A stretch of DNA of 10,743 nt. Source: Wenzhouxiangella sp. GTDB lineage: Bacteria > Pseudomonadota > Gammaproteobacteria > Xanthomonadales > Wenzhouxiangellaceae. Below the pieces are notes generated by a model, which had not been told where the DNA came from, did no database searches, and worked only from the letters and a program-made list of their open reading frames with translations. The stretch covers positions 1 through 10,743 of the forward strand of contig SKZJ01000039.1 of the NCBI GenBank assembly GCA_007127425.1. The letters run 5' to 3'. The position numbers were made by a program, and so were the translations under genes. Below are positions 1 through 9,547 of this stretch, one piece after another; positions within the stretch are counted from its first letter, which is position 1; each line of letters begins with the position of its first letter.

Positions 1-587
1 ATGGCGCCGAGGTCAAGGACTTCTACCTCGAGTCCAACTTCGCCACCGACAAGAAGGCCTCGATGATCAATTCGATGCGAACGCGCGGCAAGCGCGTGAC
101 CGCGGAGATGGTGGTCAAGCGCGACGTGCTCCGAAATGTCATGGATGCCGATACCGAGCAGCTCTATACCCACGCCAAGATCGCCAATATCGGCTCGATG
201 CTCTCGGGCGCCAACAATAACGGCTGCCATGCCGCCAATGCCATCACCGCGATCTTCATCGCGACGGGCCAGGACGTGGCCAACGTTGCCGAATCCTCGG
301 CCGGTATCCTCTACGGCGAGCTGACCGAGGACAAGGATCTCTACCTCTCCATCACCCTGCCCTCGCTGATCGTGGCCACCATCGGCGGCGGCACCGGGCT
401 GGCGACTCAGTCCGAGAGTCTTCGCATCATGGATTGTGAGGGTCCGGGCAAGGTGATGAAGTTCGCCGAGATTGTCGCGGGCACGGTGCTGGCCGGCGAG
501 ATCTCGCTGGGCGCGGCGATCTCCTCGCTGGACTGGGTTTCCAGCCACGACCAGCTCGGGCGCAACGATCCGACCCGCAAGTCGTAG
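1..587 (+). CDS. hmgA: HMG-CoA reductase, class I type, C-terminal part (5' end outside window)
   Basis: This is the 3' part of a hydroxymethylglutaryl-CoA reductase, which reduces HMG-CoA to mevalonate with two NAD(P)H for isoprenoid synthesis. The frame is open from base 3 and ends in TAG at 585-587; the start lies upstream of the window. Three catalytic landmarks of the class I enzyme are visible: the catalytic Lys in TDKK (codon 51-53), the Asp of ATGQD (codon 273-275), and a C-terminal His in SSHD (codon 546-548) that matches the general acid His of the human enzyme. The HAAN and IGGGTGL segments fit the substrate and cofactor lobes. No membrane segment is seen in this part, as expected for a soluble bacterial or archaeal-type enzyme. 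The peroxiredoxin-like gene follows 72 bases later on the same strand. Family assignment is firm. The class I call rests on motif resemblance, and cofactor preference cannot be read here. Confidence 0.93.
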   Translation, partial: GAEVKDFYLESNFATDKKASMINSMRTRGKRVTAEMVVKRDVLRNVMDADTEQLYTHAKIANIGSMLSGANNNGCHAANAITAIFIATGQDVANVAESSAGILYGELTEDKDLYLSITLPSLIVATIGGGTGLATQSESLRIMDCEGPGKVMKFAEIVAGTVLAGEISLGAAISSLDWVSSHDQLGRNDPTRKS

Positions 588-1511: not shown

Positions 1512-1898
1512 CTACAACCGCTGGATTTCCCCGGCGAGCCGATTGGCCAGAAACAAAACCTGACCGATCGACAGTGAGGATTCGGAGGCGACCGTCAGAA
1601 CGATCGCGAGGTTCTGGCACTGTGTCTTGACGACCACGAGATTCGCCTTGTCACCTTCCATTACGGTGACCTGGAGTTTACCGCTGTTGATGACCCGGGC
1701 TGCCGCCTCGGACAGTGATAATAGGGTGCTGGAAAGTGCGGCGATCTTATCTTCCTCGAGCGTGAGTTTGCTGCCGTCACAATGAGCGATCACGAAGCCG
1801 TCTTCGGTGCAGGCAGACGTGACGAGCACCTCAAAATGCTTGGCAACGAACTCCTCGATGAGCGGGCGGATAATCGGTTTTGCCTGAGCTATGTCCAT
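1512..1898 (-). CDS. Roadblock/LC7 domain protein (distal, MglB-like)
   Basis: This 128-residue protein is a single Roadblock/LC7 domain. These small dimeric proteins bind Ras-like GTPases; in bacteria MglB acts as the GTPase-activating or exchange partner of MglA. The sequence follows the family pattern: an N-terminal helix, a strand with VTSACTEDGFVIA, the central helix AALSSTLLSLSEAAARV, strands around LVVVKTQC and LAIVLTVAS, and a C-terminal helix. It has no membrane segment or signal peptide, so it should be cytoplasmic. It is the last gene of the four-gene cluster, 27 bases after the GTPase stop, which suggests co-transcription. The Shine-Dalgarno is weak (GGAA about 10 bases upstream), so translation may depend on the upstream gene. 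It resembles the canonical roadblock pattern more closely than the first roadblock gene at 3311-3670. A GTPase partner is inferred from context. Confidence 0.88.
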   Translation of the reverse strand: MDIAQAKPIIRPLIEEFVAKHFEVLVTSACTEDGFVIAHCDGSKLTLEEDKIAALSSTLLSLSEAAARVINSGKLQVTVMEGDKANLVVVKTQCQNLAIVLTVASESSLSIGQVLFLANRLAGEIQRL

Positions 1899-1925
1899 AT
1901 TGAATGATTTCCACTTTGAAGGTTG

Positions 1926-2471
1926 TCAGGCGTTCTCACGCGCTCTGTGCATGGCATTAATATATAGAGGGATACTCATCGCCGAGTCTCTCGACGTGCA
2001 GTCGATTGCCATGACTGCCGCTGGAAGACTTCGGCTTGTAAGTATTTCCTGAAATACGGTGCAGAAGGATTCCAGGCTGTCATCATCGGCCTGGTCGGCG
2101 TGGGTCACGGCTACGACGAATGGTATGTCATTCGCAACGGGCTGGAAGAAATCGATTACTTCCAGCAGCGAATCAGAATCTGGACTCTCGGAGTACTTGA
2201 CCAGAAAGGCCAGACCCCAGAGCGATCGGTTAACATGGTCCCAGAGCATGGAAAAGCGACTCTGACCGGGCACCCCATACAACCCGAGTGCCATGTTGTC
2301 GCCAAGTGCGATGCGCCCATAGTCGATACCGATGGTGGTGAACTCCTTTCCAATGTCGACAGTCGAGGCCCTGTCGGTATCGATTACCTCGATTTCACTG
2401 AGGGTTCGGACGATCGTGGACTTGCCGGTGCCCACGGTTCCGACGAATGCCAGCTTCCGATACTCGCTCAT
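1926..2471 (-). CDS. MglA/CvnD-like small Ras-type GTPase
   Basis: This 181-residue cytoplasmic protein is a small GTPase of the bacterial MglA/CvnD type. The P-loop is GTVGTGKST (residues 11-19). Switch I contains TTIG (45-48). The switch II G3 motif is GVPGQ (66-70), where the usual Asp of DxxG is replaced by Gly; MglA itself has Thr at this position. The base-specificity motif is THAD (123-126), which corresponds to NKxD and is typical of this bacterial group. CTS (158-160) fits G5. The ATG at 2471 overlaps the BLUF gene stop in an ATGA arrangement, indicating translational coupling, and GGGG lies about 8 bases upstream. The frame stays open for 28 further codons upstream, but that part lies inside the BLUF gene. 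Its genomic partners, two roadblock proteins, are the expected regulators. It lacks C-terminal cysteines for lipidation, so membrane recruitment, if any, must come from partners. Confidence 0.9.
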
Positions 2472-3256
2472 TTGTGAGACCCCATGAAGACGGAACGCAG
2501 GCGATCGTAGAAGCTGCGGTTGTGCGATAGCTCGCCAAAGGTTCCCTTGTCGCACATCCCCCTGTTATCCTGATTTGATTCCGCGTTACGTTTGAGAAGC
2601 AGAGAGTTGACCTCGTTGCGTGACAATAGCTCGTGAAGTTCATCCGGGCTCAGGTTGAATTGCGCCGTTAGTTGTGCGGGGGAGGTCCAACCAGCGAGAA
2701 GGCTGGTCAGTACGTCTATGCAGTACGGATGCTGGCCGGTCAGACCGAATACGCTGGGAAGCGCTTGCAGTCGAAACTCGTAGTTGAAGATCGCATGGCG
2801 GTCGGGTAAGTCGCCGGGTTCGGAACTGAAAATCAAGTCAAGCTGGAATATCTTGCTTAAGCGCCGCTGTATCTCTTCATCCAGAGAGTCGAAGCGATCT
2901 GCATACAACTGGATGTAGCGATTGACCTCGCTGCAAGTAAGAGAGGCCGACCAGAGCTTGAGTCGCCAGCCGGAGAAGATGCGTTCCTGAATCCCATTCT
3001 CACTCCAGACCACCGCGGTCTGATAATGTCGATTGTCGTTGGCGATCTTCTCGTAAAGCGTTTCGACTGTCTGTGCCGCGCCCTCCAGGGCCTGGAAATA
3101 ATAACCGTTTCGCCAGGTCAGAAACCCGGTAATCCCATGGGCGTGGTTGAAGCGCAGACTCTGGATGACGATCGCTGTCAGCTCAGCGGGGACAGACGAT
3201 GTATCGTCCGCAACCGACCGGCTTACGTAGCTCAGCCTTTTCAGTTCCGTTGCCAT
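2468..3256 (-). CDS. BLUF-domain blue-light sensor with C-terminal helix-turn-helix-like extension
   Basis: This 262-residue protein begins with a BLUF domain (about residues 4-102), which binds FAD and senses blue light. The key residues are present: Tyr10 (LSYVS), Asn37 before GITGFL, Gln55 in YFQALEG, and Trp97 in FSGWRLKLW. The Met usually found two residues after that Trp (AppA Met106) is Leu99 here. The C-terminal half (103-262) is not a known enzyme. Residues 176-223 read like a short helix-turn-helix or winged-helix unit ([14 protein letters not shown], then [21 protein letters not shown]). The ATG at 3256 is preferred: GGGG lies 5 bases upstream and the domain starts almost at once. 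The alternative ATG at 3286 has GGGAG only 1 base away. The gene lies 54 bases after the first roadblock gene and overlaps the GTPase start by 4 bases. The BLUF call is firm; coupling light to the GTPase is inferred. Confidence 0.92.
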
Positions 3257-3310
3257 CTTGGCCCCAATGCAGGCCAACGCCTGCATACTCCCAATCAGTG
3301 GAAAGGCAGT

Positions 3311-3670
3311 TTAGACTTCGAGAGCTTCCTCGATCTGCTGCACCTTGCGTCGTGCTAGTGCGAGGTTAGACTTTGCTTTGTCAAGAACAAGATAGACGAA
3401 GAGACCACTGTGCTGGGTGGCAGGTCGAATGATGTGGATCTGCTTTTCCAGAGTGATCAGGATATCCTCGATCTCTCCCTTGATCCCGAGACTATCCATC
3501 GTCTTCATCTTTGCCTTGACCACTTCGGAGTTTCCGGCAGCCGCCAGATCAAGGTCGACACCGCCGCCAGCCTTGCCGAGGAGCATGCCGGATTTGTATT
3601 CGACGATACAGGTTCCTGCAGCACCATCTATTCCCATGAGTTGCTCAAGACTTTCGTCAATTGTTGCCAT
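3311..3670 (-). CDS. Roadblock/LC7-like protein (proximal, first gene of cluster)
   Basis: This 119-residue cytoplasmic protein belongs to a divergent roadblock/LC7-like family. Visible features are an N-terminal helix (IDESLEQLMGI), a strand pair CIVEYKSGMLLGKA, a GGGVDLDLAAAGNSEVV segment leading into the long central helix, the conserved IEDILITLEKQIHIIRP stretch, and strand LFVYLVLDKAKSNLALAR before the last helix. Similar proteins occur next to small GTPases and roadblock partners in other bacteria (from memory of the family). The ATG at 3670 is supported by a strong Shine-Dalgarno. The frame is open upstream to 3751, but that part lacks this signal. As first gene of the unit it may be the most highly expressed component. 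It is not a close copy of the second roadblock protein, so the two likely have different roles, such as homodimer regulator versus adaptor. Confidence 0.8.
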   Translation of the reverse strand: MATIDESLEQLMGIDGAAGTCIVEYKSGMLLGKAGGGVDLDLAAAGNSEVVKAKMKTMDSLGIKGEIEDILITLEKQIHIIRPATQHSGLFVYLVLDKAKSNLALARRKVQQIEEALEV

Positions 3671-4424: not shown

Positions 4425-6086
4425 ATGTAACCCAAGCCCTCGATCAGTCGCGTTTTCAGTCAGCACTTGATGCTTGCCGGTGCTCGGGTTGTATTGCTCG
4501 TGATCGCCTTACTTGGCTGGCACCTGACAGAGCTCCGTTGACAGGCGTCTGCCGAAACACTGCAGGTTGCTGCGCGACTCAGTGCAATCCACATTGAAGA
4601 CTTTGTCAACATCCATCTGGCTGCGATTTCAATAGCTGCAAATATCGAGTCGTTCAACGACGGTTGGTCTCGACGGCTTTCGATACTCCACGATTCGTTC
4701 GATCATTTCATTACTCTGGCTGTGATTGATGCACAAGGCGTCGTGTTGGCCGGCGCACCTGAATTTAACCCGGATGGTGACCAGTTCGGATGGTCAGGCC
4801 ATATTGTCCGGGACCGGGACTACTTCACACAAGCAATAGAGAGGCGTGGACCATACATCTCAGACGTATTCCTGGGCCGTGGATATGGACAGGATCCCAT
4901 CGTTGCGGTTAGCGCGGCCCAGGTTGACGATAGCGGCGGCATCAAGGGTGTGGTGCAGGCGTCGAGTCCCTCCGCAGCATCTGCTGAATTCTGGGCATGT
5001 GAGCTGCAAAGACTGACAGCAAGCCTGCTTGTTCTCGATCGAAACCGCAGAGTCGTGTACGCCTCTCCAGGACTCGATTGGGAGGCGACTGATGATTTGC
5101 CTGGGAAGCTCAAGGCCGCCAATGCCGAAAAGCAAATGCAACTACCCGTCCTGAATGATGTATACAGTGATCAGACCAACGCCCCCTACTCTTAGGCTAC
5201 AACCGCGTTCGGTTGGCATGTGATGGGTCTGAAACCAACCACCGAGCGGATTTCTTCTCTCTTCCGCGATTTGATGAATATGCTTGTGCCTGCAATGATC
5301 GGGTTGCTCGTAGTTGTGATAGCAGCGGCGCCTCTGGCCCACCGGCTCGCAAGGCCAATTCGTGACCTTGCCCATCGTATGCAGGTGTTGCCTGTCGGTC
5401 CAGGCATTGCTCCTATTGGGAACCTGCACGCCCCATTGGAGATTCGAGAACCGGCGCGGGCGTACGATCAGCTAATTCAGCGGCTGACCAGAACATTCGG
5501 TCAATTAAAGCGAACATTGGTCGAACACGAGCATATTATCGAGGAACGAACCAGCGCGCTAAAGGTTTCGAATGCCAAGCTGCACAAACAGAGCATTACT
5601 GACGAACTGACGGGTGTTCTGAATTATCGGGGGTTGAACGAAGCGTTGGAGAATGCATGGAGGAGCACCCGAGAACAGGAAGTGCCCCTGCTTGTCCTTT
5701 GTGCCGACATCGATCTTTTCAAACCATTCAATGATCGTTATGGTCACCCGGCTGGTGATTCCTGCCTCAAACGGGTCGCATCAGCGATGCGCTCATCGTT
5801 GCTGAATCAGAACGACGTATTAGGCCGTGTCGGAGGTGAAGAGTTTGTTGTGCTGATAAAAGGGTTATCAATAGAGCAGGGAAAGCAGGTAGCAGAGCGA
5901 ATCCGCTTTGCTGTCGCCAACCTGAAAGTTCCCCATGCCGATTCACCATCTGGTCATGTGACTATCAGCCTGGGCATTGCGGTCGTTGCGCCCAACTCAG
6001 CCTGCAACCCTGCCAACCTGCTCGTCACCGCCGACGAAGCTTTGTACCGAGCCAAGCGTTCAGGCCGGAACTGCATCAGCCAATAA
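4425..6086 (+). pseudogene. Membrane diguanylate cyclase (dCache-HAMP-GGDEF) broken by in-frame stops
   Basis: In its original form this gene encoded an inner-membrane diguanylate cyclase making c-di-GMP from two GTP. One frame carries, in order, a first membrane helix (codons about 4470-4530, with VVLLVIALLG), a periplasmic dCache sensor (about 4560-5190, including DRDYFTQAIERR and SDVFLGRGYGQDPIVAVSA), a second membrane helix (about 5280-5340), a HAMP-like segment with ARPIRDLA, a coiled-coil linker and a full GGDEF domain with DIDLF, FNDRYGH and active-site GGEEF (5832-5846). Three stops interrupt this frame: TAA 4428-4430 (only if ATG 4425 was the original start), TGA 4539-4541 and TAG 5193-5195. 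No frameshift is needed to join the parts. The inhibitory-site RxxD reads NQND, so product feedback was probably already lost. GTG 5220 or ATG 5223 could restart a TM-HAMP-GGDEF product of about 288 residues. That product may retain activity, or the gene may be dead. Confidence 0.85.
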
Positions 6087-6116: not shown

Positions 6117-9100
6117 TCAAGGTCGAAGCTGCTTTTTGAACGTTGACGAATCGACCGGGCGGCCATACAGAAATCCCTGCGCCAGGTTGCATCCATGTTC
6201 ACGCAGAATTGCGAGTTGATCCGCGGTTTCGACGCCCTCGGCCACAACAACAAGCTGCATGCTCTGAGCCAGGGCCAGGCATGCGATGACAAGGTCCCGG
6301 TCTCGGTTATCGTTTGAAATGCCACTTACGAAACTCCGATCAATTTTAAGCACATCGAATGGAAAACGGCGCAGGTAACTCAAGGATGCGTAGCCGGTAC
6401 CAAAGTCATCCATTGCAATACTCACGCCGAGACCATGGAGCTCGCTCAGAATGGTTCTGGTCTGCGCACTACCATCCAGGAGCACACTTTCAGTGATTTC
6501 TACCTGTAATGCCTGCGCTGGCAAATTCCTCGATTGCAGCATTTCATTGACTCGTCGCGCGAATTCCGGATCTCGAAACTGCTGTGGAGAAACGTTGACC
6601 GAAACACGAAAATTAGGGTTAAGCAATCGGCAGTCAGCAGCCTCTTGTAAGGCCCGGTCTAAGACAAAGTCTCCCAGGCTACCAATCAGACCAGTTTGTT
6701 CCGCGATGGAAATGAATTCGTCAGGATCGACATTCCCAAGAGCCGGATTATGCCACCGGACCAATGCCTCACCGGCTACGATCCTATCGTTTGCCAGGTC
6801 GATTATCGGCTGAAGCTCCAACTTGATCTCGTTTCGTTCCAGGGCGCCGCGCAGGTTCTCCTCGATGCTGAGGCGGCGCTTGACATTGTGATTCATAGTT
6901 TCGGTGAAAAAATAATAAATATTGCGCCCCTGAGTCTTTGATTCGTACATTGCAATGTCGGCATTACGAATCAGATCTTGGGCGTTATCGCCATCTGTGG
7001 GCGCTATGGCAATGCCAATACTTGCGGTAAGCATAAGCTCTCTATCCCTGAGATAGAATGGAGACCAGAAAATCTGGAGTAGATTCTCAGTTATACGCTG
7101 AACGTCCACGGCGTTTCTTAATCCGCCCAGAAGAATTAGAAATTCATCACCTCCGAACCGGGCGACCGTATCTTGCTCCCGGACATTTTCCAACAAGCGA
7201 CGGCCTGCCTCGTTGAGCAATTCATCGCCAGCTTCATGGCCGAAGTTATCGTTGACCTTTTTGAAATGGTCCAGATCCAGGAACAGGACAGCTGTCTGAT
7301 CACCGGTGCGGTGTGATGCCTTGAGTAGCTGATTGAGACGGTCGATGGCCAGTACGCGATTGGGCAGGTCAGTCACGGAATCGTGATGAGCCATATGATG
7401 CAAACGGCGCTCAGCCTCCCGTTGTTGAGTTATGTCACGTAGCGTTCCTGTGCATCCAGATACCGCTTTGTCATGATTTCTAGTGATCCGAAGATTGGCT
7501 TCCAACCAGCGCAAACGTCCCTGTCTGGACAGAAAACCCAGTTCGATCTTTGTAACAGCCCTGTTGCCAAGCATGAGGCTTGAGAATGCGCGTTCACTGC
7601 TCGCCCGATCACTGGACTGGATAAACTCATAAAATGGCCTACCAAGAGAGTCATCAATCTTGTGACCGGTGATCTCTTCCCATGCAGGATTAAGAAAGAG
7701 CCATCGTCCTTTCTCATCCATTCGAAATACCACTTCATGAACGTGATCGACTACCGAACGATAGCGAGCCTCACTCTCCGCAATTTTTTCTTCGATCAGC
7801 TTGCGCTCGGTAATGTCCTGGGAATAACCATACAGACGAGACGCGGATTCGGGCTCGCCGTCTAGTTCCGCATGCACCTTGATCCACCTCATCTCGCCGG
7901 TGTCCGCCCTGTGGCCACGATGCTCAATATCAAAGGGGTGCCCGGTTTGCAAAGTATGCTCAAGTCGTGAATACACTTCCGGAAGGTCATCTCGATGAAA
8001 GAGAGCAAATACTTGCTCTCGGTCCAGGTGCTCGTCATAAAGCCCACTGATACGCTGCCACTGACGCGAAGCTCGGAAGACATCGTCGGCAATGTGCCAT
8101 TCCCAACCTCCCAGGTTCGCCAGTTCCTCCGCACGAGAGCGCAATAACTCGGCATCGCGCAGTGCTTGATCCGATCTGTCGCGCTTTACGACCGCGCCAA
8201 TAATTTCACACAATACTTGGAGAAGCCAGATTTCCTGATTGCTCCAGGTCCTTCGGCGCCGCACCGAATCGAGGCCGATAAAGCCATAGGGCTCACCTTC
8301 GAGCATGATCGGCGCCAGGATCAGTGACTCGATGTCTTCTTCCTCAAACACGGCCCTGTCTTTGGCCCAATCCGGGCCAAGTTCGGAAATGCAAGGCACA
8401 TGCATGACCTGTTTATTTTCCATCAGCTGGACAACCATGGGGACCGCTTCACGCGGCAAATTCTGGAGATTCTCGATTTCCGGCGTGATGCCCGCTGCGC
8501 ACCATTCGTGAGTATTGGACATCAATTGCCGGTTGCTTTTGAATTGAAACAGATAGCTCCTGTCAACCTCGCAGTACGCACCAATACGGCCCAGGGTCTT
8601 GTTGATCAATTCATCGGCCTGTGCGCTGTCTGAGCCAACAAAATCTTTGGAGGTATCCACGAGAATACGTTGAAGGCCGGAGACATACTCCAGAGTCGAT
8701 TCAGCTCGTACCCTGTCGGTAATGTCGATACCGAGTCCGGTCAGGAAGTGCTCATCGCCGAGCCTGATGCGGTGACCTATGAAATGAAAATCGCCGACTG
8801 TGCCGCTCTTTCCCCGCAAGCGTGCCTCAACAGTTGTCCGGCCAGTTCTGAATGCCTTGTCGATGGCGTGACGAAGGGATGGTTGATCAGTTTCGTTGAA
8901 AAATTCGAGTGGATGCATGCGGCTGATTTCTTCCCCAGAATAGCCAGTAATGTCTTCCAAACTCTTGTTCCACTGAAGCATCCGTCCCGATAGGTCAAAA
9001 AGATAGAATACACCCGGCAGCGCGTTGATCACTCCTGCAGAGAAATCAGTCTGCCAACGCTGGCGTGCTTCGGTACGGCGACGCTCACTCACGTCGCGGA

Positions 9101-9479
9101 TCGAGGCGCACGCCAGCAGCCCGTTTTTATCCTCGAAGGGACTCAGGCTGATTTCGATGGGGAATTCCGAGCCATCCTTGTGTTTGCCCCATAACTCTCC
9201 GTGTTTACCCATCGGGCGAGTCGAAGGGTCGTTAAAAAAATTGGTACGGTGACCGGCATGCACTGCACTCAACCGATCAGGTACCAGCTTTTCAACCAGC
9301 TTGCCGGCAAGTTCCTCATGCTGATATCCGAAAAGCGTGTCTACCTGGCGGTTGGCAAAAACGATGCGACCGTCGCTGCCGACGATAATGATGGCATCCG
9401 GGAGGCTGTCAAAGACAGTATCAAATTTCTCACTACTGTCATCAAGCGGCATGCCGCTTGCGGTTATTCGGGAACCCAT
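6117..9479 (-). CDS. Cytoplasmic PAS-PAS-GAF-PAS-PAS-GGDEF-EAL c-di-GMP enzyme
   Basis: This 1120-residue protein has no membrane segment. Domains in order: PAS (about 20-135), PAS (145-258), GAF (265-435), PAS (455-558), PAS (565-690), GGDEF (695-855) and EAL (870-1115). The cyclase site GGDEF (776-780) is intact, with an RxxD inhibitory site (REQD, 767-770) five residues before it. The phosphodiesterase site is also complete by eye: EALVRW (904-909), VNVSPQQF, EITES, DDFGTGYASL, a Lys in LKIDRS, AEGVE and QGFLYGRPV. Both c-di-GMP synthesis and breakdown are therefore possible, set by signals at the PAS and GAF domains; the EAL activity may dominate, as in many such hybrids. ATG 9479 is preferred over the adjacent TTG 9482 because ATG is stronger and only one codon differs; the Shine-Dalgarno is poor. 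The gene ends 30 bases from the converging cyclase pseudogene. No heme- or flavin-binding signature was recognised in the PAS domains, so ligands are unknown. Confidence 0.93.
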   Translation of the reverse strand: MGSRITASGMPLDDSSEKFDTVFDSLPDAIIIVGSDGRIVFANRQVDTLFGYQHEELAGKLVEKLVPDRLSAVHAGHRTNFFNDPSTRPMGKHGELWGKHKDGSEFPIEISLSPFEDKNGLLACASIRDVSERRRTEARQRWQTDFSAGVINALPGVFYLFDLSGRMLQWNKSLEDITGYSGEEISRMHPLEFFNETDQPSLRHAIDKAFRTGRTTVEARLRGKSGTVGDFHFIGHRIRLGDEHFLTGLGIDITDRVRAESTLEYVSGLQRILVDTSKDFVGSDSAQADELINKTLGRIGAYCEVDRSYLFQFKSNRQLMSNTHEWCAAGITPEIENLQNLPREAVPMVVQLMENKQVMHVPCISELGPDWAKDRAVFEEEDIESLILAPIMLEGEPYGFIGLDSVRRRRTWSNQEIWLLQVLCEIIGAVVKRDRSDQALRDAELLRSRAEELANLGGWEWHIADDVFRASRQWQRISGLYDEHLDREQVFALFHRDDLPEVYSRLEHTLQTGHPFDIEHRGHRADTGEMRWIKVHAELDGEPESASRLYGYSQDITERKLIEEKIAESEARYRSVVDHVHEVVFRMDEKGRWLFLNPAWEEITGHKIDDSLGRPFYEFIQSSDRASSERAFSSLMLGNRAVTKIELGFLSRQGRLRWLEANLRITRNHDKAVSGCTGTLRDITQQREAERRLHHMAHHDSVTDLPNRVLAIDRLNQLLKASHRTGDQTAVLFLDLDHFKKVNDNFGHEAGDELLNEAGRRLLENVREQDTVARFGGDEFLILLGGLRNAVDVQRITENLLQIFWSPFYLRDRELMLTASIGIAIAPTDGDNAQDLIRNADIAMYESKTQGRNIYYFFTETMNHNVKRRLSIEENLRGALERNEIKLELQPIIDLANDRIVAGEALVRWHNPALGNVDPDEFISIAEQTGLIGSLGDFVLDRALQEAADCRLLNPNFRVSVNVSPQQFRDPEFARRVNEMLQSRNLPAQALQVEITESVLLDGSAQTRTILSELHGLGVSIAMDDFGTGYASLSYLRRFPFDVLKIDRSFVSGISNDNRDRDLVIACLALAQSMQLVVVAEGVETADQLAILREHGCNLAQGFLYGRPVDSSTFKKQLRP

Positions 9480-9547
9480 CAACTTCTAAGCCTGCACTTA
9501 TACACCACTATCCCTTTGATTCTGTGCAACCGTTCCCCTTCTGAGGC

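What the first reader, a model, noticed from the sequence alone, without database searches (positions are those of the whole stretch)
1512..3670. A BLUF blue-light sensor embedded in a roadblock/GTPase cluster: candidate light-gated MglA-type switch
Seen: four tightly packed minus-strand genes encode a roadblock protein, a BLUF protein, a small GTPase with MglA-like motifs ([18 protein letters not shown]) and a second roadblock protein; the BLUF and GTPase genes overlap as ATGA. Known: MglA GTPases with MglB roadblock partners control polarity and motility in Myxococcus and Thermus, and BLUF domains usually drive c-di-GMP or cAMP enzymes or act through protein contacts. Inferred: light changes the BLUF protein, which alters GTPase nucleotide state through the roadblock proteins. 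I know of no characterised light-controlled bacterial GTPase of this type.
Basis: partly seen in the sequence, partly recalled or inferred. Interest (0 to 1): 0.82.

Follow-up and report, generated by a model that had tools for sequence, protein, structure and literature searches.

The report
Blue-light sensor wired to bacterial GTPase
Four neighbouring bacterial genes link a blue-light sensor to a small Ras-like GTPase switch and its two helper proteins, and the same gene set recurs in distant bacteria, so this looks like a natural light-operated version of a known but poorly understood switch.

Summary
In detail: minus-strand genes at 3670-1512 encode RB1 (divergent roadblock), a BLUF protein, a small GTPase and RB2 (roadblock); BLUF and GTPase overlap as ATGA. 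The neighbourhood is not unique. The same order occurs in G036, G066 and three Arenicella-genus genomes, and a BLUF gene sits at other positions beside the same module in six more genomes. In the order sample, 9 BLUF genes lie within 3 kb of such a GTPase where 0.14 are expected.

The module resembles the "Group 3 MglA" systems of Wuichet & Sogaard-Andersen (2014): GTPase, one or two roadblocks, and an unnamed protein (X) with receiver-like N-terminus and winged-helix-like C-terminus. New here: in this clade the BLUF protein is that fourth component. BLUF takes the place of X's N-terminal part and is fused to X's C-terminal domain. The seven fusion-linked GTPases in my tree form one clade (100/96). 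One further system has a LOV-type gene next to X.

Most likely, blue light is the input of a Group 3-type GTPase switch. Photochemistry, nucleotide state and output are untested; type IV pilus motility is plausible. My literature searches found no such system.

The parts
3311..3670 (-). RB1, divergent roadblock/MglB-like protein, 119 aa
   Evidence: Conserved family, 67-72% identity in f1, f5, f9 and Arenicella rows; Robl_LC7 below cut-off; related to RB2 by hhalign 78%, 1.7e-5; weak match to solved roadblocks 0.044
2468..3256 (-). BLUF-X fusion protein, 262 aa
   Evidence: Pfam BLUF 2.5e-22; 8 database relatives at 63-79% identity
2960..3244 (-). BLUF domain; photocycle residues Tyr10, Asn37, Gln55, Trp97 present, the usual Met two after Trp is Leu99
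   Evidence: fold matches Slr1694/PixD, Foldseek E 8.1e-10
2480..2788 (-). C-terminal domain related to the C-terminus of the Group 3 X protein (winged-helix-like by predicted helices and strand, plus terminal helix)
   Evidence: hhalign 8.2e-6 for the window lineage, 7.8e-12 with all 16 fusion rows; unlinked BLUF tails 0.44; secondary structure of the model
1926..2471 (-). Small GTPase of Group 3 MglA type, 181 aa; start overlaps the BLUF-X stop (ATGA)
1512..1898 (-). RB2, roadblock/MglB-like protein, 128 aa
   Evidence: Robl_LC7 2.6e-7; family profile matches solved roadblocks 2.3e-19, CvnB5 7.4e-14, MglB 2.5e-5

Best explanation
This is a blue-light-input version of a Group 3-type MglA system. 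Shown: a four-gene set RB1, BLUF-X, GTPase, RB2, in which BLUF takes the place of the N-terminal (receiver-like) half of the conserved Group 3 protein X and is fused to X's C-terminal winged-helix-like domain and terminal helix. Inferred: light absorbed by FAD switches the hydrogen bonds around Tyr10 and Gln55; the change passes into the fused X domain; that domain binds or releases the GTPase or its roadblock pair and so changes how long the GTPase stays GTP-bound. The GTPase is the output of the unit. Its most likely target is type IV pilus-dependent surface motility or attachment; the target is the weakest step.
For: Same four genes in the same order in the window, G036/L003, G066, G651 (two loci), G539 and G746. 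X lies directly upstream of the GTPase in 78 of 96 GTPases examined (76 by profile, window and L003 counted by hand), and no separate X gene was seen at the fusion loci. The fused C-terminus is X: a profile of 67 BLUF-free X proteins finds 6 of 8 fusions singly (5e-7 to 2e-15), and profile against profile gives 8.2e-6 (window lineage alone) to 7.8e-12 (all), against 0.44 for 16 unlinked BLUF tails and 0.05 or worse for roadblock and GTPase profiles. In G147 and G151 the split form occurs: X is only 114-115 aa, C-terminal part, and its start overlaps the stop of a BLUF gene by 4 bases. 9 BLUF genes near a GTPase, 0.14 expected. Photocycle Tyr, Asn, Trp in 8 of 8 fusions, Gln in 6 of 8. A two-PAS protein with the LOV signature sits directly before X in G031. 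Group 3 mgl of Snodgrassella: an mglB allele changes colony-edge spreading (PMC11112851). PixD-PixE shows a BLUF protein steering a regulator that binds PilB1 (PMC9090330 passage).
Against: No experiment. Window and L003 fusions are not found singly by the X profile (0.12 and 0.75, within the control range); the link rests on profile comparison and on the other fusions. The usual Met after the Trp is Leu in window and L003; two Arenicella fusions have Gly for the key Gln. Most Group 3-type units have no BLUF: 81 of 95 tree rows carry no BLUF or LOV label. Short X proteins also occur without a BLUF nearby (L039, L041). The pilus link is weak: 9 of 12 BLUF-linked genomes have a PilB over cut-off, but flagellin absence (12 of 12) is common in the order too (221 of 398).
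Confidence: 0.62

Rival explanations
1. BLUF-X is a light-regulated DNA-binding regulator and the GTPase/roadblock unit acts on it, with transcription as output, as the 2014 paper suggested for Group 3 systems because of the winged-helix-like domain.
For: Winged-helix prediction in PMC4316618 section 18; helix-helix-helix-strand pattern in the model.
Against: No DNA-binding family was found for X in Pfam; the fused domain ends in a conserved short helix not typical of a DNA reader (inference); winged helices often serve protein contacts (recalled).
Confidence: 0.2
2. The BLUF domain no longer reports light; it serves as a redox sensor or as a structural scaffold for the X domain.
For: Gln to Gly in 2 of 8 fusions; Met to Leu or Phe in 3 of 8.
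Against: Tyr, Asn and Trp kept in 8 of 8 and Gln in 6 of 8, the window included; the two Gly copies lie in genomes with another fusion copy that has Gln.
Confidence: 0.1
3. One reading: a Myxococcus-like MglA/MglB pair on which a separate BLUF protein acts through the roadblocks.
For: Two roadblock genes and a BLUF gene next to the GTPase.
Against: No G2 arginine finger, GVPGQ instead of TVPGQ, no G4 lysine; BLUF carries an X domain, which is the conserved neighbour of the GTPase itself.
Confidence: 0.07
4. Chance neighbours or an assembly artefact of the MAG.
For: The contig is 10,743 bases from a 65% complete MAG; of the genus members in the sample only this one has the fusion.
Against: Eight database relatives at 63-79% identity, seven further fusion genes in five other genomes, 57-58% orthologues in the genus of the PAS-GGDEF-EAL gene on the same contig, 9 near pairs against 0.14 expected.
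Confidence: 0.01

Closest known systems
Group 3 MglA systems of beta/gamma-Proteobacteria (Wuichet & Sogaard-Andersen 2014, PMC4316618; Snodgrassella example PMC11112851)
   Same: Small GTPase without G2 arginine and G4 lysine, two roadblock genes, conserved C-terminal X domain encoded directly before the GTPase, gammaproteobacterial host.
   Different: The receiver-like N-terminus of X is replaced by BLUF; G3 reads GVPGQ, not GTPGQ; G5 reads DCTSR, not DAR.
BLUF proteins with an output part (OaPAC, BlrP1, AppA; solved structures)
   Same: N-terminal BLUF domain followed by a C-terminal output part.
   Different: The output part is the Group 3 X domain, not a nucleotide cyclase, an EAL domain or the AppA C-terminus.
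PixD-PixE of Synechocystis (PMC9090330 passage)
   Same: A BLUF protein steers a signalling regulator with effects on type IV pili.
   Different: PixD is a free BLUF protein and PixE a PATAN/CheY-like regulator; no GTPase or roadblock is part of that pair as described there.
Actinobacterial conservons (Group 2 MglA: CvnA-D)
   Same: Operon that ties a sensor to a roadblock and an MglA-type GTPase (PMC4316618 section 18).
   Different: Sensor is a histidine-kinase-like CvnA; CvnC instead of X; host phylum differs.

Membership tests
Group 3 MglA system | Conserved gene set: X protein, MglA, one or two MglBs | tested here: met
   RB1 only as divergent roadblock
Group 3 MglA system | X has a receiver-like N-terminus | tested here: not met
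   BLUF (2.5e-22) stands there instead; so a variant, not a plain member
Group 3 MglA system | X has the winged-helix-like C-terminal domain | tested here: met
   hhalign 8.2e-6 to 7.8e-12; not found singly for the window (0.12)
Group 3 MglA system | Thr in place of the G2 arginine | tested here: met
   T45, T46 invariant in 16 rows
Group 3 MglA system | G3 motif GTPGQ | tested here: not met
   GVPGQ in window, L003, L035 and the f9 rows
Group 3 MglA system | G4 often without lysine | tested here: met
   THAD
Group 3 MglA system | G5 motif DAR | tested here: not met
   DCTSR in the window; DAR in the f9 rows
Group 3 MglA system | Falls in the Group 3 clade | tested here: inconclusive
   Tree of 95 sample rows has no named Group 1-5 references
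BLUF photoreceptors | PF04940 over cut-off and photocycle Tyr, Asn, Gln, Trp | tested here: met
   79.2 bits against 25; residues (roles recalled)
BLUF photoreceptors | Conserved Met two after the Trp | tested here: not met
   Leu in window and L003; Met in 33 of 33 unlinked BLUFs
BLUF photoreceptors | Binds flavin and red-shifts in blue light | not testable with these tools
   needs purified protein
Group 1 MglA (Myxococcus, Thermus) | Arginine finger beside the G2 Thr and TVPGQ | tested here: not met
   FTTIG and GVPGQ (definition)

The most novel reading that the evidence does not exclude
Bacteria made light-gated Ras-like GTPase switches more than once by plugging photoreceptors into Group 3-type MglA systems: a BLUF-X fusion lineage (window, Arenicella and others), separate BLUF genes in further lineages (in two genomes as a split form of the fusion), and a LOV-type protein in one, giving a natural optogenetic control of a small GTPase and of surface behaviour.
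Probability: 0.53. Interest if true: 0.82.

Novelty: new variant of a known kind. Interest (0 to 1): 0.72.

Why it matters
What feeds signals into Group 3 MglA systems is unknown. A photoreceptor in the input position is an input that can be switched on and off at will, so the chain from X to roadblocks, GTPase and output could be measured with light. It would also be a native module for light control of a Ras-like GTPase. Two named species, Arenicella xantha and A. chitinivorans, appear to carry it.

Tried and rejected
Rejected: 'unique to this genome'; 'Group 1 MglA'; 'random neighbours'; 'any BLUF tail looks like X' (16 unlinked tails, E 0.44; 39 control BLUF proteins, best 0.07). Flagellin absence as a sign of pilus output was weakened by its own control: 177 of 398 order genomes have flagellin, and it follows family lines. 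PilB-family matches as such say little, since 13 of 14 control genomes also match; only the cut-off counts (9 of 12, controls 0 of 14).

Led nowhere: insertion site (the two genus relatives with the orthologous EAL gene show no other window gene nearby apart from GGDEF-domain matches); protein search with the X alignment gave 4 hits; NCBIfam had no match over a cut-off for the four proteins; the RB1 model has pLDDT 51.7 and was not used; no name for the window's genus; 'Arenicella' with 'light' showed nothing relevant among the 8 of 68 papers listed.

Limits of the counts. The place table was cut short by the tool, so 9 near pairs is a lower bound. In the class sample I counted 5 same-strand BLUF genes, gene end to gene end; a sixth, divergent, BLUF beside the second G651 unit was left out. 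The BLUF family model was run on 76 of the 122 GTPase-positive order genomes; the 46 left out are all of family f2 (they were covered by the weaker). In one search, window and L003 were counted as having X by hand. In G061 the gene in the X position was not matched by the X profiles, so 'X' is only its position. In the BLUF tree the window's own gene is mislabelled SEP (row L001); the eight fused BLUFs group at 94/87 with two unlinked long-branch BLUFs (G065) inside, so a single fusion event is likely, not shown; that script also stopped with an error after the tree, and the residue table was made. The X models had taken in L035; one search is the clean test.

Full report
What is in the window. 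Four minus-strand genes lie at 3670-1512, with a gap of 54 bases (from the BLUF start at 3256), an overlap of 4 bases (ATGA, 2471-2468) and a gap of 27 bases. Pfam gives BLUF (2.5e-22), Robl_LC7 for RB2 (2.6e-7) and PF03029 (1.9e-9) for the GTPase, with Ras-type models below their cut-offs; RB1 stays below the Robl_LC7 cut-off. The RB2 family profile reaches solved roadblocks, CvnB5 and MglB (2.3e-19, 7.4e-14, 2.5e-5). RB1's profile reaches two roadblock chains only at 0.044 and 0.052 but is related to RB2's (hhalign 78%, 1.7e-5). The GTPase profile matches 590 solved sequences; the 60 best shown are Sec4/Rab/Ypt-type (9e-15 and worse), with no MglA among those 60. The genome is a MAG, 65% complete, and the window is one whole contig of 10,743 bases; by family model it has one BLUF gene and one roadblock gene over the cut-offs.

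The neighbourhood recurs. The one locus found in genome contigs, L003 (MAG 'Gammaproteobacteria bacterium isolate OFTM154'), has the same four genes in the same order. A search of 151 relatives with the GTPase found matches in 48; I fetched the surroundings of the listed places, and of some BLUF places, and scored them with profiles made from the window genes. The order RB1-BLUF-GTPase-RB2 is seen in the window, in G036 (contig of the same length as L003's, so probably the same record) and in G066. Other arrangements: BLUF, X, GTPase, RB2, RB1 in G147, G123 and G151; RB2, RB1, X, GTPase, BLUF in G088 and G076; RB1, RB2, BLUF, an unassigned gene, GTPase in G061. In the class outside the order, 61 GTPase-positive genomes were tested with the BLUF model: 12 have BLUF, and in 3 it lies next to the GTPase on the same strand: G651 (two loci), G539 and G746, all with the order RB1-BLUF-GTPase-RB2. 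L157 (G746) holds a tandem: RB1, BLUF-X, RB2, RB1, BLUF-X, GTPase, RB2. Database proteins on contigs of the same lengths as those of G651 and G746 are named Arenicella xantha and A. chitinivorans, so genus g240 is taken as Arenicella (order Arenicellales).

Chance. In the order sample of 398 genomes, 114 have a BLUF match and 122 a GTPase match. In the 42 with both, 9 BLUF genes lie within 3 kb of a GTPase; 0.14 are expected. In the 12 class genomes with both, 5 same-strand BLUF genes do so and 0.08 are expected. Related genomes are not independent; even 3 events in the order give P 4e-4.

What the module is. Wuichet & Sogaard-Andersen 2014 (PMC4316618; abstract, sections 13-16 and 18 read) describe Group 3 MglA systems of beta/gamma-Proteobacteria: a protein of unknown function, MglA and one or two MglBs, the unknown protein having a receiver-like N-terminus, a variable linker and a winged-helix-like C-terminus. 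I find such a protein (X) directly upstream of the GTPase on the same strand in 78 of 96 GTPases, RB2 within 3 kb in 86, RB1 in 67 and both in 65. Four X proteins tested have no convincing Pfam match. The window GTPase fits Group 3 in G2 and G4 but deviates in G3 (GVPGQ for GTPGQ) and G5 (DCTSR for DAR). I therefore call it Group 3-type, not a plain member.

The fusion. At the fusion loci no separate X gene was seen; the BLUF proteins are 246-287 aa long and their C-terminal part is the X C-terminal domain. A profile from 67 X proteins, none with BLUF, finds 6 of 8 fusions one by one (5e-7 to 2e-15). Window (0.12) and L003 (0.75) are not found alone; the best of 39 control BLUF proteins scores 0.07. 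Profile against profile, the window lineage without L003 and L035 gives 8.2e-6, L035 alone 3.9e-7, L003 alone 0.0036, and roadblock or GTPase profiles 0.05 or worse. All 16 fusion rows together give 7.8e-12, tails of 16 unlinked BLUFs 0.44. In G147 and G151 a split form exists: X is 114-115 aa, C-terminal part only, and its start overlaps the stop of the BLUF gene by 4 bases; short X proteins also occur in BLUF-free loci (L039, L041). The model of the window protein (mean pLDDT 72.1, pTM 0.53) has the BLUF fold (best match Slr1694/PixD, 8.1e-10) followed by helices 179-188, 193-200, 204-212, strand 220-224 and a last helix 249-259. That fits a winged helix plus a terminal helix; the fold search returned BLUF matches in the 50 rows shown and so does not test it.

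Evolution. In a tree of 95 GTPases (7 fusion-linked, 6 with a separate BLUF, 1 with LOV, 81 with none) the 7 form one clade (100/96), joined at 100/100 with the f9 clade, where 3 of 13 have a separate BLUF; the f11 systems with BLUF lie elsewhere. The BLUF tree puts fused, f9 and f11 BLUFs in three places (caveats above). So BLUF joined these modules at least twice, probably three times. Six genomes of the window's genus in the sample have a Group 3-type GTPase, but at the loci fetched only the window has the fusion, which suggests transfer or loss. In G031 (same family, no BLUF match) a two-PAS protein with the LOV signature GRNCRFL (motif recalled) ends 13 bases before X.

Light sensing. Tyr, Asn and Trp of the BLUF photocycle (roles recalled) are kept in 8 of 8 fusions and Gln in 6 of 8; L155 and the first copy in L157 have Gly. 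The Met two after the Trp, present in 33 of 33 unlinked and 6 of 6 separate linked BLUFs, is Leu in window and L003 and Phe in one Arenicella copy. The window protein should therefore bind flavin and cycle, possibly with changed signalling.

How it may work. Shown: gene order, fusion, residues. Inferred: light to BLUF, BLUF to X domain, X domain to GTPase or roadblocks, GTPase to output. For output, the experimental hint on Group 3 that I saw is Snodgrassella: passaged bacteria with a changed orphan mglB show motile flares at the colony edge and a colonisation advantage, which the authors link to type IV pili (PMC11112851; abstract and passages). Of 12 BLUF-linked genomes 9 have a PilB over the cut-off and none has flagellin, but 221 of 398 order genomes lack flagellin too. 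PixD-PixE is the nearest working parallel: a BLUF protein whose light state frees a regulator that binds PilB1 (PMC9090330 passage).

Literature. Searches for BLUF with roadblock and GTPase, with MglA, with Ras-like GTPase, with conservon, and a six-term search (15 of 40 papers listed) showed no paper on such a system (seen as listings); the one BLUF + roadblock + GTPase paper has 'roadblocks' only in a cited title. A review of light-controlled motility has no occurrence of MglA or GTPase (PMC5812497, term search). The library holds open-licence papers only. On that basis: a new variant of a known kind.

Noticed in passing
L051:5057-5827 (G031:C333): A two-PAS protein with the LOV signature GRNCRFL ends 13 bases before X of a Group 3-type unit: possibly a second photoreceptor class on the same module.
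   Followed up: partly
L155:5318-6061 and L157:3647-4435: Two Arenicella BLUF-X copies have Gly instead of the photocycle Gln; the L157 copy also has no GTPase gene of its own before the next RB1. Perhaps light-blind partners of the second copy.
   Followed up: partly
L155:6914-7531: A further, free-standing BLUF gene of 205 aa lies divergently right beside the RB1 end of the second G651 unit.
   Followed up: no
L040:5013-5471, L042:4505-4960, L129:4450-4926: An unassigned gene of about 150 aa precedes the BLUF gene in the three f9 systems with a separate BLUF; the one tested (L129) has no Pfam match.
   Followed up: partly
X proteins and BLUF-X fusions, e.g. window 2480-2510 (-), L104:3925-4992, L042:5615-6652: The X proteins aligned mostly end in a short helix-like stretch with Phe/Leu and basic residues, kept also in the fusions; it may be a binding or membrane motif.
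   Followed up: no
window 4458-6086 (+): A dCache-HAMP-GGDEF reading frame is interrupted by two in-frame stops: decayed gene or sequence error.
   Followed up: no
window 6117-9482 (-): A PAS/GAF-GGDEF-EAL protein of 1121 aa next to the unit has 57-58% orthologues in two genus members (G003, G017) without the BLUF unit beside them.
   Followed up: partly
window 63-587 (+): The C-terminal part of an HMG-CoA reductase, cut by the contig end (profile positions 203-368 of 368).
   Followed up: no
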